Assembly (NCBI GenBank): GCA_003116975.1
Contig: BGKB01000196.1
Coordinates: 1 to 64,000 of the forward strand
Reading direction: 5' to 3'
DNA length: 64,000 bases
Origin: Aurantiochytrium sp. KH105
Lineage: Eukaryota; Sar; Bigyra; Thraustochytrida; Thraustochytriidae
Under the pieces are notes generated by a model that was not told where the DNA came from, searched no databases, and saw nothing but the letters and a program-made list of their open reading frames with translations. Of the stretch, positions 53,953-64,000 are shown piece after piece. The position numbers and the translations under genes were made by a program. Positions within the stretch are counted from its first letter, which is position 1, and every line of letters starts with the position of its first letter.

Positions 53953-55575
53953 ATGCCCTCGGCCAAGAAACTCACGTGGTCCAACGAGGAGGACGTCGTC
54001 CTTAAGCGCGTGCTGGCGCAGGCCGGCGTGCAGCGACTGAGCAACGGCGCCATCGTCCTCAACGGCAGCTGGGGAGACGTCGCCACGCACCTGCCCGGAC
54101 GCAGCGCCAAGCAGTGCCGCGAGCGATGGCGCTTCAACCTCTGCCCCGATATTAACAAGTCCGAGTGGTCCTGCGAAGAGGACGCCACACTCATCGAGAA
54201 CCAGCTCAAAGTCGGCAACCAGTGGGCCCTCATCGCAAGACAACTCGATGGACGCACAGAAAACAGCGTCAAGATCCGCTTCAAGTCCATCCTTCGCGCG
54301 AGCCGCCGCGTTTGGACTGCCAAGGACGACGCCGACCTCATGGCGCTCCACAAACTCATGGGATCCAAGTGGAGCATCATTGCCGAGCGCATGCCCAACC
54401 GCACACGGAACGGCGTCAAGACTCGCTTCCTCGTACTCCGGAATGGCGTCTCCGAGCGCCCACTTCTCCCGGGAGCCGCCGAGCAGCTCTTTCGTACCGC
54501 AAGATATGCTGACCTGGTGGAACGATTCATCGAGTCTGCCGGCGTGCGCAAGCTCGTGCCCTCGTCTGCCACGCAAAGCCAGCCGCAAGCCAACACGTCC
54601 ACATCTGTGTCCGCAACGACCCCACTGTCCCCACAGACGCACGCCTTGCAACAGCAGCACCACAACCAGATTCACCACCAGCACGCGGGCCAGATGCGCA
54701 CGCTGCGCCCATCGCATTCGGACATGGCAAGTCCACAGACCGTCCCGCTCCCAGACATGCTCGCGCCCGAAACGCGTCACCCCTCGTTCGCCTCGGAAGA
54801 ATTCGCCGAGGACGAGCGCCAGACCCACGGCGCCATGGGCAAGCTGAGTCGCTCGTCCTCGAAGCGATCCGCTCCCTGGATGGACGCCGAGGCAATGGCG
54901 GCCTCGAGCCGGAACATTCCTGGATCCACACTCTCGAGCCCGGACCTCGGCCCTCTCAGCATTGGCGCTCTTCATCCTACAAAACGCTCACGATCCGCGT
55001 ACCCCGAAGGTGCAGATGAGTCTCTCCTCGATATCCTCGCACCCCATGCCAACCGCGAGTGGCGTCTTCAGCGCCAGGCTCAGCAGCAACAACAACAACA
55101 ACAATACCATCACTATGCACCGCAGCAGCAACAGCAGCCACACGCATACCGACAAACCTTTCACAACTTCAAGTCGCACAGCGCCGCAGCCGAGCCCCTC
55201 GATGCTGCAGACTCGATCGAAAATCGCGCGCCCCCTCCGCCGGCATCATCGTCGTTAGCATCCTCAGCGACGCAATTTAATAACCCCCACAACAGACACC
55301 AAGACTTTGAACGCCACACATCGCTAGCGTCGTCTTCGTCATCAATGTCCCGCGACGACTTTTTGCAGTCGCAGCCCGTGCAAAACGGCGCCGCGACGTC
55401 TGCGTCGAACCCGGGCGGACTTTCTTCGTCAACACTGCAGCTGGCGCTGGCCTTGGCCAACTCGGACGCCCTCTTGCCACTCTCTGCCGCTGCGCTCTTT
55501 GTCCAAGAACAGCGCAACCAGCATCATCGTCATGGTGACGACCAGCGCGTGCGCTCCCTTCTCAAATTGTACTAA
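53953..55575 (+). CDS. Three-repeat Myb DNA-binding protein
   Basis: 540 residues, presumably a nuclear transcription factor. R1 (about 7-63) starts KLTWSNEEDVVLKRVLAQAG and ends AKQCRERWRFNL, with about ten extra residues between helix 1 and helix 2. R2 (about 68-115) starts SEWSCEEDATLIENQLKVGN and ends NSVKIRFKSIL. R3 (about 118-166) starts RRVWTAKDDADLMALHKLMG and ends NGVKTRFLVL. The third tryptophan of R2 and R3 is replaced by Phe (IRFKS, TRFLV), which differs from animal c-Myb. The remaining 370 residues are low complexity: Gln/His runs (CAA and CAG mixed), Ser runs and a PPPP patch, typical of a transactivation region. Targets are unknown; 3R-Mybs commonly control cell-cycle genes. 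Confidence 0.88.
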   Translation: MPSAKKLTWSNEEDVVLKRVLAQAGVQRLSNGAIVLNGSWGDVATHLPGRSAKQCRERWRFNLCPDINKSEWSCEEDATLIENQLKVGNQWALIARQLDGRTENSVKIRFKSILRASRRVWTAKDDADLMALHKLMGSKWSIIAERMPNRTRNGVKTRFLVLRNGVSERPLLPGAAEQLFRTARYADLVERFIESAGVRKLVPSSATQSQPQANTSTSVSATTPLSPQTHALQQQHHNQIHHQHAGQMRTLRPSHSDMASPQTVPLPDMLAPETRHPSFASEEFAEDERQTHGAMGKLSRSSSKRSAPWMDAEAMAASSRNIPGSTLSSPDLGPLSIGALHPTKRSRSAYPEGADESLLDILAPHANREWRLQRQAQQQQQQQQYHHYAPQQQQQPHAYRQTFHNFKSHSAAAEPLDAADSIENRAPPPPASSSLASSATQFNNPHNRHQDFERHTSLASSSSSMSRDDFLQSQPVQNGAATSASNPGGLSSSTLQLALALANSDALLPLSAAALFVQEQRNQHHRHGDDQRVRSLLKLY

Positions 55576-57762: not shown

Positions 57763-57927
57763 ATGAGCGAAGACGCGGGCTCCCAGGAGGGCGGCTCCAA
57801 CCAACCTCTTGTGCTCGTTCTCAACGCGAGCCCGGCGACGAGCTTCGAAGAAGAGATCGAAAATAGACCGGAGGCCTTAAAGGCGCTTCGGGACGAGGTC
57901 GATGTCGAGGCGCTCTCGCAGCTTTAA
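57763..57927 (+). CDS. Upstream 54-codon segment, likely the detached N-terminus of the next frame
   Basis: Starts ATG 57763 (MSEDAGSQEGGSNQPLVLVL) and stops at TAA 57925, in the same frame as the 2024-codon frame that begins at the next codon. The acidic, hydrophilic composition is like that of the following segment, so the two read as one protein interrupted by a stop. No intron with acceptable signals and phase removes the TAA. Alternatives are an upstream ORF, a nonsense allele or a base error in the assembly. Confidence 0.45.
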   Translation: MSEDAGSQEGGSNQPLVLVLNASPATSFEEEIENRPEALKALRDEVDVEALSQL

Positions 57928-60900
57928 CGGGTCTGGTGGATTCCGGGCAGAGAGGAAGGCGATTCAACGGAAATCGGGCTGGACGATGTCACTGGTCTGA
58001 AGAAAAAGTACCCGAAAGAAGAAGTGGAGGGCCTCGAGCTTTTTGCGCTTTGCCTTAGCACCTTGCTGGACGATCATGATTCTAAGTTGCTGGAAGATGA
58101 AGCTGATCATCAAAGAGCTCGGATCAATGTATCTTCCAAGAGCAAATGTGTCGCAAACATGCTCAGGGACCTTGCAGCAGAGTCACTCTCAGCACAAAGT
58201 CGCGATTTCTTACACCCGCTCAAGATGGCAAGACATGCTCCTCATTTCATCGAATTTAACGACTCTGATGATCTCCAAAGTCAACTGCAGGAGAAACTTT
58301 CACAAACAGATGCGCCCGAAACTCGCATTGTACTTTTACGCGATGCGGACAGCGCTGCTACCCAGAGTGTTCTGCTCGTGTTCACGTCCGAAACAGCTAA
58401 GAAGGTTCGTGAGCTTCTCGAATCAGAGGACATTGCTGAAGAAGCTGACGACGAGACGATAGGTGACGAGGACGAGGCAGCTGACCGGCCTGTACAAATC
58501 ATCTTTGTTGTGGACAGCTCAAATGAAGAGGTGAATGGCCAAGAAGGAACCATCGAGCTCATTAGACCACGCTTCGAGACCGATCTGATACAGCGTCGGG
58601 ATGATGCGAAGAAGCTGCTCACGCTCGAGAGAGCGTGGGAACAAGTGAAACGCGAGATCGAGAGCTTTGGACTGCTTCTTAAGCAAGACTTTCGTGAGCT
58701 TGTGAAGGAGGACCATGTAAAGATGGAGCTTGACGAAAAGAAAGAAAAGAAGCTTGACGACGATGAAGAAAAACCTTCTATGATGTATGTGAAGCTAGAA
58801 GTTAAGAAAGGGGCCTTTCAGGAGCAGAGCGCGCTTCGTCAGCAGATCGGCACGCCACAGCCTGATGTTGCGCATCCTGAGCAACGCGAGGTCGCCGAAG
58901 AGGTCTTTCGCAAAGCCGAGCAGGTCCTCTTTGGTCAAGTAGACGCAGACTGGACGTCCAAGTTCAACAGCGTCTCCTTCGTGGTGCTTACACCAAACTT
59001 CAACTCCCTGCAGTCCCAGACTGCAGACAGAGTCACACGCGCAAAGCTCGAGGGCGGACGCGTGCTCAAGCACACCAAGGTACCGCATGCGGCCATGAAT
59101 GCGCACCGAGAGTGGATGGAAGAGGAGGCCAAGAACCCAAAGACTCTCTTTGTCATCATCGCTGACGAGTGTCACTTTGCGCCGACGAAAGATGGCGCAC
59201 ACGACAGGCTTCTTAACAATTCAAAGCTGAGTGGTGAGAATGTACTGCGTCTTCTCGTCTCTGCAACGCCGCAGAACGTACTTTCTAAGACTTCACGAGT
59301 TACCGACGACAACATCGTTCGCTGGTTCAAGCCCGCCTCGATGTACCGCAGCATGGATTACTATGTCGAGACGGCGACGTGGGCGGTGCCAAGTTACGTA
59401 CAGCCGCTGAGACTCGCTGTCAAAGGGAAAAATTATGATGTCGACCCGCGTGTGTTCACGCATGAAGATTGTGAATACCGGTATCCGATGCACGAATACA
59501 AAGCATTCTGCAGTGTCTTCAATCGCAGGGTGGGTGAGGTGCTAGGCATGAGTATGGGGAAAGAGATCATTTCGGTTCAACGTGGTGAGGAGAACTTGTT
59601 GCTGGTCGTTCATTGTGATGTTGACTTCGACTTTAACGAGAACTTCGATGATAATGGTCTTCTTTACTGGCTCGGCTTTGAGGACGATCGCGAACGCATG
59701 AATGCAGCACGTCAGGCTGCAATTAGAGATGGACGAAGACAGTACTACAGAGTAGGCGCATCGGGTATCCCACTCTTTTGCGATACAGCCGAAAACAACG
59801 AGGTCGTGGACTGTCTTCCACGTCGACGTCAGCGTGTACTCAAAGATGAGGCCTTTGATATCGTACGTGGACTCGCAAATAGATCGTTCGGCAAGCGAGG
59901 CGCACCCAAGCGTAAGCAAGAGACGATCAAGGTAGCCAAGTCGACTCCTCTCTACGATGGTCACATCATCATGGCAGACTACCTTCTTTCGCTCACATAT
60001 CTTGCGGTGTATCGGGTTGACCATGGCAATCTCTGGAAAAGAGACTTGCGCCGCAAAGATATTTTTGCACCACTGGAGGAAGATGATGTCAGGCGACTTG
60101 CGCTTGACGATGAGAAGCTCAAGACCTTTGCTCTTCACCTTGGCTTTGCAGATCAAGTATGGCCAGGTGTTGGCCACGAAACAGACAAAGAAGTGGGGCG
60201 TTTCGAGATTGCTGATGGCGTTGAGAAAGCTTCCGTTCAACACCTTCTCAAGGTTCTTCTCGAGGCGACCGTGAGATCGGCATGGTCTGAATTGAGCAAC
60301 CTGGACGAGGCCGCATGGCAGCACCTCACGAGACGGCTCAACGAAGAATGGGTCGCAAGAGCAACGAGTCTTGCAACAGCAGAAATTCATGATACGCCTG
60401 AGCATTGGCGATTCGCTTGGCAGTATGTCATCTCTGAGAAGCTGGAACGCAACCGCGAAGATCGCACGGAATCGCAAGGCAACACGTCTCAGGCGTGGTA
60501 CAACGAGACCGATCGTCTCTTGCACGACCTGCTAGACGTTGATCCCAAGTACAGAACAGGACGTATGGCTGTCATTCGCGTCTACGAAACGGACGAGAAC
60601 CTCTCGATACAGGACTGTCTCCGCAGCGCACTGAAAAAGCTAGGGCTCACTTGTGACGAGCACGGCGGCCTTCTTAGCGTCGTTGCAGATGTTGGTGGCA
60701 GCGATGGAAAGAAGCGAACGTCTGAGGACAAGGTTGCAGACGTTGGTGGCAGCGATGGAAAGAAGAAGCGAATGTCTGAGGACAAGGTCGCAGACGTTGG
60801 TGGCAGCGATGGAAAGAAGAAGCGAACGGCTGAGAACAAGGTTGCAGACGTTGGTGGCAACGACGGAAAGAAGAAGCGAACGTCTGAAGGCCAGGAGGTG

Positions 60901-63900
60901 CGAAAGGCTGCTCGACGCGCGACAAGTCTTTTCACCCAGCTCGAGCCATGGACACTAACACGCGACCTGCGGCATCCTTCCAAACAAAAGGAGGCGGAAG
61001 CTGAGCGCGAGACCATTATTGACCGCGTGAACAAGTCTTTTGCCGAAGCGCAGGCTCAGGAGGCTGAGGCACGGAAACATCTCGAAGAAGCATCTCGTCC
61101 TTCATCTTCTAAAGCTGTCCAGAAAACAGCCAAGTACGAGGACCTGGAGAACTTGCCCACGATCGTGATTCTGTGCGAGAAGGGGCGCATGGGTGACACC
61201 TTTCCGCATTCGTTTCGCTTTCTAGACATCCGTCTGCGCTCATCGAAGACGTACTCGACGTTTGTGCAAGAGTTCGGTCGCGTCTGCCGCTATCCAGGTC
61301 TTGACTCCAGCACTGCAGTAACCTTTGAGGTCTCTGAGGAAGGAGGCTGGGCGGCGCTTGAGCAACAGCTCGATGACTTTTTCAACGATCCTGAAGTGAG
61401 AAGGTATTTTGCCAAAGGCGGGAGCTATGCCGTTATGGACCCGGGCCAGGAGGTGCGTTTTCACGCCGACTCGGAGATGCAGCTCACTTCCGGGTTCCGT
61501 ACGGCCTTGGGGAATGTCGATGATGGACGGGCGCGATTCGGCACGTGGACAGTGAAGCGCTACGTGCATGTGCTCCCGACGGTGCTGATGAACGCAGAGA
61601 GATACAACGCGCAGCTGCAAAAGGCAATCGAGCACAAGTATCGTGATGCGGAAGGACGCCAGCGCATTGATCAGTGCATTCCTGGTCCACTTGATCTGTA
61701 CTTGTCTTCTGGGCCGAGACGCGCTGCCGCAGAATCGTGCCCTCGATTCGATACCATCAAAGGAGAGCAAGTCATCATCAATCCGATGCATGACATTGAT
61801 TCTTACCGATCAAGAAGTGCACAAACGAGTCGGCAAGCTACTCACTACGACAGCGGGCACAGTGATGGTGACGATCCACGTCGTCTCTTGCTCATGGCGC
61901 AGTGCCAGCAGGGCAAGACCGGGACATACCTTCATTTCCTGCGTTTGCTCAAGGAGCGCGTGGAGCTTGTGATTCCCACACCTCCTGATGCACTTCCGTT
62001 GGTTCCGCGAGCGGAGTGGACTTTGCCGCACTGGAGAAAACTCATTGTCAGCGCTCAAGCACCACTTAGCAAGTTCTACAATAGGCTTCAGACGAGCCAA
62101 TATGACACGAGCATTATGCAGCAGCGCACGCTTGTACTCATGCTTGCAAGTGAGAATGAATCCAACTGGCAAAAAACATACCCCGACTACTTGCTTCACG
62201 AAGATGGTGAAGCTGTCCAGTGCAAGGCTGGCAAAGTCAAAGTTGAAAAGCTTAGCCAGAAGCTTGCTCAAGAGCATGCTGCTCCTTTTAATGGTTCTCA
62301 GTGTACGAATGCTCAACTCGCATTTGACTGTGTCAACTTTGACGGTCGGTTTTCTTCTGCCGAAGGAGATGCTCTCGCGAAGTCGTTTCTGGAAAGTAAA
62401 CACAACACGGCTCAGCTTCGCGACATTTTGGACAAGCATGCACCAAAAAAAGGCACATCGATGGGACATCGGGTACGCCTTGCACGTCAGCACGTTCAAC
62501 GTCAGCTTTGGGATGCCGGGTGTCGACACGGGAACATGAATCAGCTTGAAACCGGTGGGGCTGATAAGCTTACGCAGTCGATGAAAGCAGCGAATGCGTA
62601 TGAGAGCGTCGCTGCTCGGTCTATTTCCCCAGAGTTCGACGGCAAGTATCATCGCAAGCAGTACGTTGTCAAAGATGTCAAGCTTGTAGGCGAGGGTGTT
62701 TGTTTGTCTGCACCCTATGCTGGCTTTCACGACCTCAACCTCAAAGCGGATGCTTGCAACGTACAAATCAATGTCGGAAAGCGCAAGCTTCTTAACGTGA
62801 GACTGCCCGCGAAAGAGCATAACATGGGCACTGTAGACAAGGCCACGACCGTTCGTTGGGTGTTCGTGCCCTCGTACAATCGTGCCGGCGTCGCGCTCGT
62901 GGATTACGAAAAGGCGATCCCTGGAGACGACAGCGGTAGGCCGACCGTCGTCTGTATCGTGGTCCGAAGTGGCAAGCAATTCGATGACTACGTAGCGGCG
63001 TATGGATCCGCTCATATTATTCTCAGTCTTCCGGAATCGATGGCGTCCAAGTCTTCGGAAGGATCTCGTGTCTATGCAGATCGAGGTGGCATCGGATATG
63101 CTCGGCTGTTCATCCAGCTCGCAGCACATCAGCTCGGCCTTCCCTGGGTCTGGATCCTCGATGACAATGTCGATGTGTGCTATGAGCGCAAGCTTGAGGA
63201 GAAGGTCCCAGCGGATGCTCTAAGCGCCCGCCCAGATGCGTGCACGTTCTCAACGGTTATGACAGGCGTCGAGAGAATTGTGCACAACGAGGATGAAAAA
63301 CTCACCGAAGCGCACCAGCAGAAACGCATGGAGAAGTGGGAGCACGAGAAGCCGATGCTTCTTCGGGGAAGTCCAGCTCCTAAAGCGAGCAGTGAAAATG
63401 CACGTACCAAAAAGGAGCTGACAGGAGGTTCAGATCAGTACGGACTGATTGGGATCCGTCGTGACCCACGAGCCTGCCCAACAGAGTCCAAGGATCCGTT
63501 CATGGTCACGTATTCGGTATACTCGTTCATCTTCTTGAATGTCACGAGCACTGTCAACGCTGGGGTCTTTTTCCCGGTCAAGACCTTCGGCGAGGACGTA
63601 GAGTTCAATCACCTGGTAGATGAGGCTGGCTTGGTCTGCCTCAAGGTGAATCGCTTCTTTCATCACAAAAAGAACCTCAAGCTGAGTGCGAAGGAGAAGA
63701 GGGAGCACACTGGCAACGATGTGTCCCGGCAGGAATTTGCGAACCTTACGGAGGCGCTGGATCATTTCGGCGATATAAATGGTGGTATAAGGTCATCGTC
63801 TCTCTTGTCGAAGACGATGCCAACATTTTTCGAGCCAGACAAGCTATGGGCTGAGAAGTTTTGGGAGCGAATTTCTGGCGGAGCTGATGCAAGGCCCTCA

Positions 63901-64000
63901 AATGCCCTGCTCACGATCTTCTTGGAGGCTTCCTCAAACGATGCATACAACCTTATTTTGTTGCGGAGAGATGAACAGTTGTCGAAGCTGCTGCTTGTAG
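57928..64000 (+). CDS. Giant GREB1/TAGT-like protein: circularly permuted SF2 helicase plus glycosyltransferase-like domain (3' end outside window)
   Basis: Open for 2024 codons to the window edge with no stop; the first internal ATG is 58159. Motifs in order: Ia-like VVLTPNFNSLQSQ (58981), II ADECH (59161), III SATP (59260), V-like EKGRMGDTFP (61177), VI QEFGRVCRYPG (61267) and only then Walker A AQCQQGKTGTYL (61897). This is an SF2 helicase circularly permuted between motifs I and Ia. Four 54-bp repeats with GKKKR patches lie at 60682-60894. The C-terminal part (62850 onward) looks like a GT-A-type glycosyltransferase: VRWVFVPSYNRAG, LGLPWVWILDDNVD and TFGEDVEFNHLVDEAG. A permuted SF2 helicase followed by a TAGT-type glycosyltransferase is the layout described for GREB1. 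Helicase motifs are seen; the GREB1/TAGT link is inference. Codon use is more AT-tolerant than in neighbouring genes. Confidence 0.7.
60682..60894 (+). repeat. Four in-frame coding repeats, unit 54 bp (first 51 bp)
   Basis: Units start at 60682, 60733, 60787 and 60841. Each encodes VADVGGSDGKKKRTSEDK with small changes; the first lacks one Lys codon. Each has a Gly-Lys-Lys-(Lys)-Arg patch that resembles a simple nuclear localisation signal. The array sits in the spacer between helicase motifs III and V. Confidence 0.95.

What the first reader, a model, noticed from the sequence alone, without database searches (positions are those of the whole stretch)
57928..64000. A 2024-codon open frame encoding a circularly permuted SF2 helicase with a glycosyltransferase-like domain
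The largest frame in the window has no stop before the edge, so searches that require a stop would miss it. Helicase motifs appear as Ia, II (ADECH), III (SATP), V, VI (QEFGRVCRY) and then Walker A (AQCQQGKTGTYL). Motif I after motif VI defines a circular permutation. A GT-A-like region with WILDDNVD and GEDVEFNHL follows. GREB1 of animals and TET/JBP-associated glycosyltransferases (TAGT) are described with this architecture. TAGT enzymes are proposed to glycosylate oxidised pyrimidines in DNA, and GREB1 has been reported to glycosylate the oestrogen receptor. Presence in a protist that appears to be a thraustochytrid would suggest an older origin and perhaps a DNA- or chromatin-modifying role.
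Basis: partly seen in the sequence, partly recalled or inferred. Interest (0 to 1): 0.92.

Follow-up and report, generated by a model that had tools for sequence, protein, structure and literature searches.

The report
Tandem GREB1-like helicase–glycosyltransferase family in thraustochytrid
The window holds a damaged copy of a giant gene joining a rearranged helicase motor to a sugar-transferring enzyme, related to the animal protein GREB1; the same genome carries other, longer copies, so the activity of this poorly understood family could be tested in a single-celled organism.

Summary
Frame 57928-64386 (stop 64387-64389, beyond the window) matches Pfam cpSF2-GREB1 (E 4e-110) and TAGT (E 1.6e-10).

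Corrections and additions. (1) The window copy is damaged at both ends: in-frame TAA at 57925-57927, and a C-terminus replaced by a dispersed repeat; the core is intact. (2) It is one of 12 copies on six contigs (about six genes per haplotype, three loci, two of them arrays), with both catalytic modules under purifying selection. (3) Relatives are three Hondaea GREB1-like proteins and a large coral-type set. (4) No TET/JBP match was found, without a positive control. (5) One array encloses a Roc-COR-TIR gene, possibly by chance.

Best reading: an ATP-driven, nucleic-acid-engaging glycosyltransferase family; acceptor unproven. Orthology to GREB1 not shown.

The parts
57763..57924 (+). N-terminal start of the gene (54 codons, MSEDAGSQEGG...) now cut off by a stop
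   Evidence: DNA alignment to the C15 haplotype; translation
57925..57927 (+). in-frame TAA; CTA (Leu) in the other haplotype
57928..64000 (+). open frame of the cpSF2-TAGT protein, 2024 codons in the window, 2153 in all (to 64386)
58867..61971 (+). circularly permuted SF2 module (Pfam cpSF2-GREB1)
59161..59175 (+). motif II ADECH
59260..59271 (+). motif III SATP
61183..61206 (+). motif V GRMGDTFP
   Evidence: motif name recalled
61267..61293 (+). motif VI QEFGRVCRY
61897..61923 (+). Walker A (motif I) AQCQQGKTG, C-terminal to motif VI
   Evidence: permutation test
62860..63273 (+). TAGT glycosyltransferase domain as matched by Pfam (profile 3-122 of 205)
63085..63105 (+). GGIGYAR, GT-A-like motif before the DD motif
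   Evidence: role recalled
63151..63174 (+). WILDDNVD, DD motif of the GT
63589..63609 (+). GEDVEFN, ED motif (putative catalytic base)
   Evidence: role inferred from GT-A enzymes (recalled)

Best explanation
A GREB1-like cpSF2-TAGT protein: a circularly permuted SF2 ATPase fused to a GT-A-like glycosyltransferase, flanked by a family-specific N-terminal region and a variable C-terminal region. Most likely the ATPase engages nucleic acid (chromatin or foreign DNA/RNA) and uses ATP to bring the GT to its acceptor, where the DD(N) motif holds a metal-nucleotide-sugar and the ED residue activates the acceptor hydroxyl. Shown: architecture, permuted topology at sequence level, conserved catalytic residues, purifying selection, multigene arrangement. 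Inferred: ATPase activity, sugar transfer, nuclear location. Acceptor not determined: I put a hydroxylated DNA base at about 0.45 and a protein hydroxyl (as reported for GREB1) at about 0.35. The window copy itself lost its normal N-terminus to a nonsense codon and its C-terminus to a dispersed repeat; if translated at all from an ATG of the open frame it would start at 58159 or later, with the core intact.
For: Pfam cpSF2-GREB1 E 4.2e-110 and TAGT E 1.6e-10. De-permutation test: ResIII 16.7 to 34.1 bits, replicated in two other own-genome copies (11.9 to 29.6; 15.2 to 35.6) and a coral-type protein (19.0 to 31.7); on the window copy two hand-scrambled inserts, five unrelated segments and Walker A in the wrong place gave 15.9-20.5 bits, under the 22.5 cut-off. 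Catalytic motifs nearly invariant in 12 copies. dN/dS over the six allele pairs 0.04-0.40 in the two RecA parts and 0.09-0.32 in the TAGT part; in the three pairs of locus C alone 0.04-0.23 and 0.09-0.29. phrog_842 matches the GT at E 8.9e-9. Twelve copies at three locus pairs.
Against: No structure model could be made. No solved relative of the core by sequence. RecA2, native or spliced, did not match Helicase_C. Walker A put in the wrong place still raised ResIII a little (20.5 against 16.7 bits), and the coral-type protein already matched ResIII 42-163 in native order. One gene has DDCH in motif II and another EN for ED, in both alleles, so not every paralog need be active. No direct evidence for any acceptor. 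No Tet_JBP match, which weakens the DNA-base route. tblastn of the GT part found no phage relative.
Confidence: 0.62

Rival explanations
1. Protein glycosyltransferase: the cpSF2 part is a binding platform and the GT adds a sugar such as GlcNAc to transcription or chromatin proteins, as reported for animal GREB1 and the oestrogen receptor.
For: GREB1 is cited as an O-GlcNAc glycosyltransferase, there as a cytoplasmic function (passage in PMC10446492; the primary paper is not held). No TET/JBP partner found.
Against: The PHROG match of the GT is a phage DNA glucosyltransferase family; ATPase motifs are intact, which a mere platform would not need.
Confidence: 0.3
2. DNA-base glycosyltransferase in a J-like pathway: it glycosylates hydroxymethyl-pyrimidines made by an oxygenase of this genome.
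For: TAGT and phrog_842 matches; TAGTs were proposed to act on substrates such as 5-hydroxymethyluracil (passage in PMC4111573).
Against: No Tet_JBP or DB_JBP1 match, while AlkB-type oxygenases are found with the same search (11 matches, 9 over the cut-off). Neither null had a positive control, so absence is not proven. Only 3 DNA methylase matches.
Confidence: 0.25
3. Innate-defence or self/non-self receptor-like family: the motor senses foreign nucleic acid, the GT disables or marks it, and the variable C-terminal part gives specificity.
For: Arrays here and several paralogs per contig in a coral-type set, many with ankyrin ends; C-terminal region with higher dN/dS (0.40-0.72 in the five allele pairs other than the window's) and C-termini that align in several registers in four of six genes; a Roc-COR-TIR gene inside one array.
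Against: The genome has at least 150 TIR_2 and 124 COR-A matches, so I estimate the adjacency at about 0.09-0.18 by chance. No dN/dS above 1 in any segment of the pairs tested. Self-comparison of the C-termini showed no internal repeat at its threshold. No functional data.
Confidence: 0.17
4. Cargo of a mobile element or endogenous virus rather than a host gene.
For: Multi-copy; the window copy ends in a dispersed repeat.
Against: The loci are colinear between two haplotypes, flanking or intergenic DNA mostly 88-97% identical; Myb genes lie on both sides of locus A; no relative in viral contigs in three pattern scans. The repeat has no match at the other 11 copies.
Confidence: 0.04

Closest known systems
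GREB1-like proteins of Hondaea fermentalgiana (P0001-P0003)
   Same: Same cpSF2 and TAGT order in P0001 and P0002, 76-81% identity over 63-100% of the query. P0003 shares the DDCH form of motif II with one own gene (by eye).
   Different: P0001 repeats part of the helicase after a cut-short GT (by eye) and misses the strict ED pattern; P0003 misses the GT motifs
Coral-type cpSF2-TAGT proteins (P0004 and relatives)
   Same: Same permuted motif order by strict patterns in 90 of 120; several paralogs on one contig
   Different: About 20-30% identity to the window; C-terminal ankyrin repeats in many
Animal GREB1/GREB1L
   Same: The two core domains, by Pfam family name and by the review PMC6163654 (passages)
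   Different: That review says the GREB1 helicase has no catalytic activity; here the ATPase motifs are intact. No other GREB1-specific Pfam family matched. Not compared residue by residue: no GREB1 sequence was retrieved
Phage beta-glucosyl-HMC-alpha-glucosyltransferase family (phrog_842) and TET/JBP-associated glycosyltransferases
   Same: GT region matches over 128 residues
   Different: Profile 7-110 of 270 only, and tblastn finds no phage relative; no TET/JBP found in this genome

Membership tests
Pfam cpSF2-GREB1 | profile match above the curated cut-off, near full length | tested here: met
   369.9 bits against 26.2, profile 2-709 of 716
Circularly permuted SF2 helicase | motif I lies C-terminal to motif VI and completes RecA1 | tested here: met
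   sequence level only: ResIII match rises above cut-off and covers 6-163 (3 proteins) or 21-163 (1) of 164 when the segment is moved, 4 of 4 proteins
Circularly permuted SF2 helicase | three-dimensional fold | not testable with these tools
   structure prediction switched off
TAGT glycosyltransferase | profile match above the curated cut-off | tested here: met
   41.7 bits against 27.5, but profile 3-122 of 205 only
TAGT glycosyltransferase | DD and ED active-site residues | tested here: met
   DD in 12 of 12, ED in 10 of 12 copies; roles recalled
TET/JBP-coupled DNA glycosylation pathway | a TET/JBP dioxygenase in the genome | tested here: inconclusive
   no match, but no positive control rang; AlkB-type oxygenases are found by the same method
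GREB1 ortholog | GREB1-specific flanking domains (that Pfam holds such families is recalled) | tested here: inconclusive
   no such family in the window frame at E up to 1 nor in two N-terminal and five C-terminal stretches of other copies at E up to 0.5
GREB1 ortholog | closer to vertebrate GREB1 than to other family members in a tree | not tested
   no GREB1 sequence retrieved
GREB1 ortholog | glycosylation of a steroid receptor or other protein | not testable with these tools
   needs biochemistry

The most novel reading that the evidence does not exclude
cpSF2-TAGT proteins are a eukaryotic innate-defence system: a nucleic-acid-driven ATPase that finds foreign or mobile DNA/RNA and marks or disables it by glycosylation, with fast-changing C-terminal parts for recognition, expanded independently in thraustochytrids and reef corals; animal GREB1 would be a domesticated member with a dead motor.
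Probability: 0.13. Interest if true: 0.88.

Novelty: new variant of a known kind. Interest (0 to 1): 0.56.

Why it matters
What GREB1-type glycosyltransferases act on is unsettled: DNA bases were predicted, a protein target was reported. A microbial multigene family with both active sites conserved and no visible TET/JBP partner offers a direct test of DNA against protein as acceptor, and suggests that the animal protein may descend from an ATP-driven enzyme. The parallel expansion in a coral-type set, with ankyrin repeats at the C-terminus, raises the question of a recognition or defence role.

Tried and rejected
Considered and set aside: (a) chance open frame: excluded by Pfam, 12 copies and purifying selection. 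(b) Mobile-element or viral cargo: colinear haplotypes, no viral-contig relative in three pattern scans; these scans use two short peptide patterns each and could miss distant relatives. (c) Prokaryotic source: two pattern scans of GTDB genomes found none, with the same limit; TAGT alone does ring in one control genome, Bacteroides ihuae, not followed. (d) Significance of the Roc-COR-TIR neighbour: my estimate gives 0.09-0.18 by chance. (e) Positive selection: no segment above 1. (f) Helicase_C match for RecA2: none. (g) PDB relatives: none, or weak matches, mostly ankyrin, from C-terminal columns of the coral rows. (h) Phage tblastn: none. (i) PADLOC gave one weak match (HEC-01A, E 2.3e-4, residues 63-114), not pursued. 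(j) NCBIfam: none. (k) Literature: GREB1 with stramenopile, thraustochytrid, coral, cnidarian, and 'GREB1-like' with TIR and expansion gave 0, 0, 4, 2 and 0 papers, none on this by title and abstract start (listings only). Other searches gave the papers cited, of which I saw passages only.

Full report
Observation. The open frame runs from 57928 to 64386 with TGA at 64387-64389, 389 bases beyond the window edge; 2153 codons. Pfam gives cpSF2-GREB1 at E 4.2e-110 over nearly the whole profile and TAGT at E 1.6e-10 over its first 60%.

Permutation test. In native order the region from motif Ia to motif III matches the ordinary SF2 profile ResIII only at its end (positions 117-163 of 164, 16.7 bits, under the 22.5 cut-off). 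With the Walker A segment, which lies about 900 residues further on, set before motif Ia, the match covers 6-163 of 164 at 34.1 bits, E 3.3e-8. The same move raised a second copy from 11.9 to 29.6 (profile 21-163) and a coral-type protein from 19.0 (already 42-163) to 31.7 (6-163), and a third copy from 15.2 to 35.6 (6-163): 4 of 4 tried. Controls on the window copy: two hand-scrambled inserts 16.8 and 17.7; five other segments of the same protein 15.9-16.8; Walker A put at the end 20.5. None of the eight passed the cut-off. RecA2 did not match Helicase_C, so that half rests on motifs V and VI and on the Pfam family.

The glycosyltransferase. Besides TAGT, the region matches phrog_842, beta-glucosyl-HMC-alpha-glucosyltransferase, at E 8.9e-9 (coral-type P0004 at 0.0014). 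The order G-ARLF / hydrophobic-DDN / ED resembles GT-A enzymes (recalled). tblastn against phage records found nothing.

The family in this genome. The assembly has 76.0 Mb in 367 contigs; the window is C196:1-64000. cpSF2-GREB1 has 12 matches above cut-off, all in long frames without stops (2153-3028 codons), and TAGT has 12 matches above cut-off, one in each of the same 12 frames. They fall on six contigs in three pairs: C196/C15 one gene each, C69/C138 two each, C96/C182 three each. Pair members are colinear, with flanking or intergenic DNA mostly 88-97% identical and one short stretch at 86% (little true flank was fetched for the C96/C182 pair), so I read them as two diverged haplotypes with about six genes per set. 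Protein identity is 92-95% within pairs of the C96/C182 locus, 86-88% for C69/C138 and 77% for C196/C15; 43-52% between the C96/C182 locus and the others, and 44-46% among its own paralogs.

Tree. In a tree of 24 sequences (12 own, 3 Hondaea, 9 of the 120 listed coral-type proteins; helicase part only, and four coral rows not trimmed at the start) the three gene pairs of C96/C182 join by allele (two at 100/100, one at 81/61), and one C69/C138 pair does (99/100). The C196/C15 pair is unresolved, and of the other C69/C138 pair the C69 copy joins Hondaea P0002 (98/99). That could reflect gene conversion, hybrid origin or shared old variants; I did not separate these.

Selection. Across six allele pairs, whole-gene dN/dS is 0.32-0.47; RecA1 0.11-0.40, RecA2 0.04-0.37, TAGT 0.09-0.32, linker 0.26-0.76; C-terminus 0.40-0.72 in five pairs, and 0.24 but near saturation in the window pair, whose C-termini differ. 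Both catalytic modules are constrained. One gene reads DDCH in motif II and another EN for ED, each in both alleles, so paralogs may differ in activity; Hondaea P0003 also reads DDCH (by eye).

The window copy is damaged. In its haplotype partner C15 the frame starts upstream; here the homologous ATG (57763) is followed after 54 codons by TAA (57925-57927) where C15 reads CTA. At the other end, beyond the window, DNA matched to C15 ends at C196:64037 and the protein likeness by eye at about 64150. The rest of the frame belongs to a dispersed repeat: the 96-residue tail query has 76 matches in the genome (one is itself; several are two modules of one frame), the best others 51-58% identical, many in 326-codon frames. 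DNA of one such element matches C196:64173-64599 at 77-81%, and a remnant like the C15 C-terminus lies at about C196:66198-66374 (61 residues, 46%). The core from motif Ia to the ED motif is intact. I cannot exclude an assembly error at the TAA.

Flanking regions. Counted from the frame start, 384-534 residues precede the core (315 left in the window frame). Among six representative genes they are 30-70% identical and, in the two scanned, match no Pfam family above its cut-off. C-termini of four of the six align to each other in several registers, which I read as divergent internal repeats; direct self-comparison found none at its threshold. Of five C-terminal stretches scanned, one has a match just above a curated cut-off (Med10, 24.6 against 23.3 bits, E 2.5e-5), which I do not trust without more evidence.

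Relatives elsewhere. Searching 5.8 billion proteins with the window frame gave three hits among the 7991 candidates scored, all named GREB1-like protein of Hondaea fermentalgiana, a thraustochytrid. A six-copy profile added P0004 and P0005. From P0004, 162 proteins reached E 1e-3, of which 120 were listed, P0004 itself included. Where a source gives a species it is Oculina, Stylophora, Porites, Montipora or Acropora, all reef corals (recalled); most rows are unnamed, so 'coral-type' is inferred for them. Several seem to share a contig, judged by its length (for example four Oculina proteins). Among the 120, strict patterns find Walker A in 120, SAT in 119, ED in 119, motif V in 117, motif II in 116, DD in 104, GGxGYAR in 99, motif VI in 98, and the order II, VI, Walker A, GT in 90; some misses are conservative variants. 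Vertebrate GREB1 did not appear; the search works by shared words, so this is not absence. No relative in viral contigs or GTDB genomes by pattern scans.

Pathway context. Tet_JBP and DB_JBP1 gave no match; neither search had a positive control. The same method finds 11 AlkB-type matches, 9 over the cut-off, and three DNA methylase matches. A Roc-COR-TIR gene lies between the two genes of the C138 array, with its counterpart in C69. But the genome has at least 150 TIR_2 matches (150 of 258 candidates scored) and 124 COR-A matches, 116 over the cut-off; I estimate 0.09-0.18 for such a neighbour by chance.

Known and new. The two-domain core is a known Pfam architecture, and Hondaea proteins already carry the name GREB1-like. 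The proposal that TAGTs modify bases such as 5-hydroxymethyluracil, and the GREB1 link, are described in PMC4111573 and PMC6163654 (passages only); two primary papers I asked for were not held. Not found in the library by my searches: the multigene family with constrained, intact ATPase motifs in a thraustochytrid and its parallel in corals. By contrast the review states that the GREB1 helicase has no catalytic activity.

Verdict. Real, correctly recognised, and part of a more interesting family than the single frame. Its substrate is undetermined. I rate it a new variant of a known kind.

Noticed in passing
G000 C138:103273-106050 (L018:3273-6050, - strand) and C69:188840-191614: A Roc-COR-TIR gene lies between two cpSF2-TAGT genes (domains for C138; TIR and COR-A matches in the C69 frame).
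   Followed up: partly
whole genome G000: Very large TIR and Roc-COR repertoire: at least 150 TIR_2 and 124 COR-A matches, many in frames of the same length and place; one lies about 21 kb beyond the window gene (C196:85679-86995).
   Followed up: no
C196:64173-64599 (beyond the window) and L038:468-1400: Dispersed element with an 80-residue module, twice in many 326-codon frames; 75 matches besides the window copy; not scanned for a family.
   Followed up: partly
window 53953-55575 and C196:76728-79778: Two Myb genes, three Myb stretches each, lie on either side of the locus.
   Followed up: no
proteins P0004-P0124: Large coral-type cpSF2-TAGT family, many with ankyrin ends and several paralogs per contig.
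   Followed up: partly
C96:256188-264347 / C182:33841-41736 and C69:177671-186334 / C138:108591-116858: Paralogs with changed catalytic residues in both alleles: EN for ED in the GT, and DDCH for DECH in motif II.
   Followed up: partly
C69:173116-176676 (- strand, 1187 codons): A long frame next to the array whose end (DQKVTKRK) looks like the C-terminus of the C15 copy (DRKVTGRK); it has no QQGKTG motif, so it may be a partial copy (by eye).
   Followed up: no
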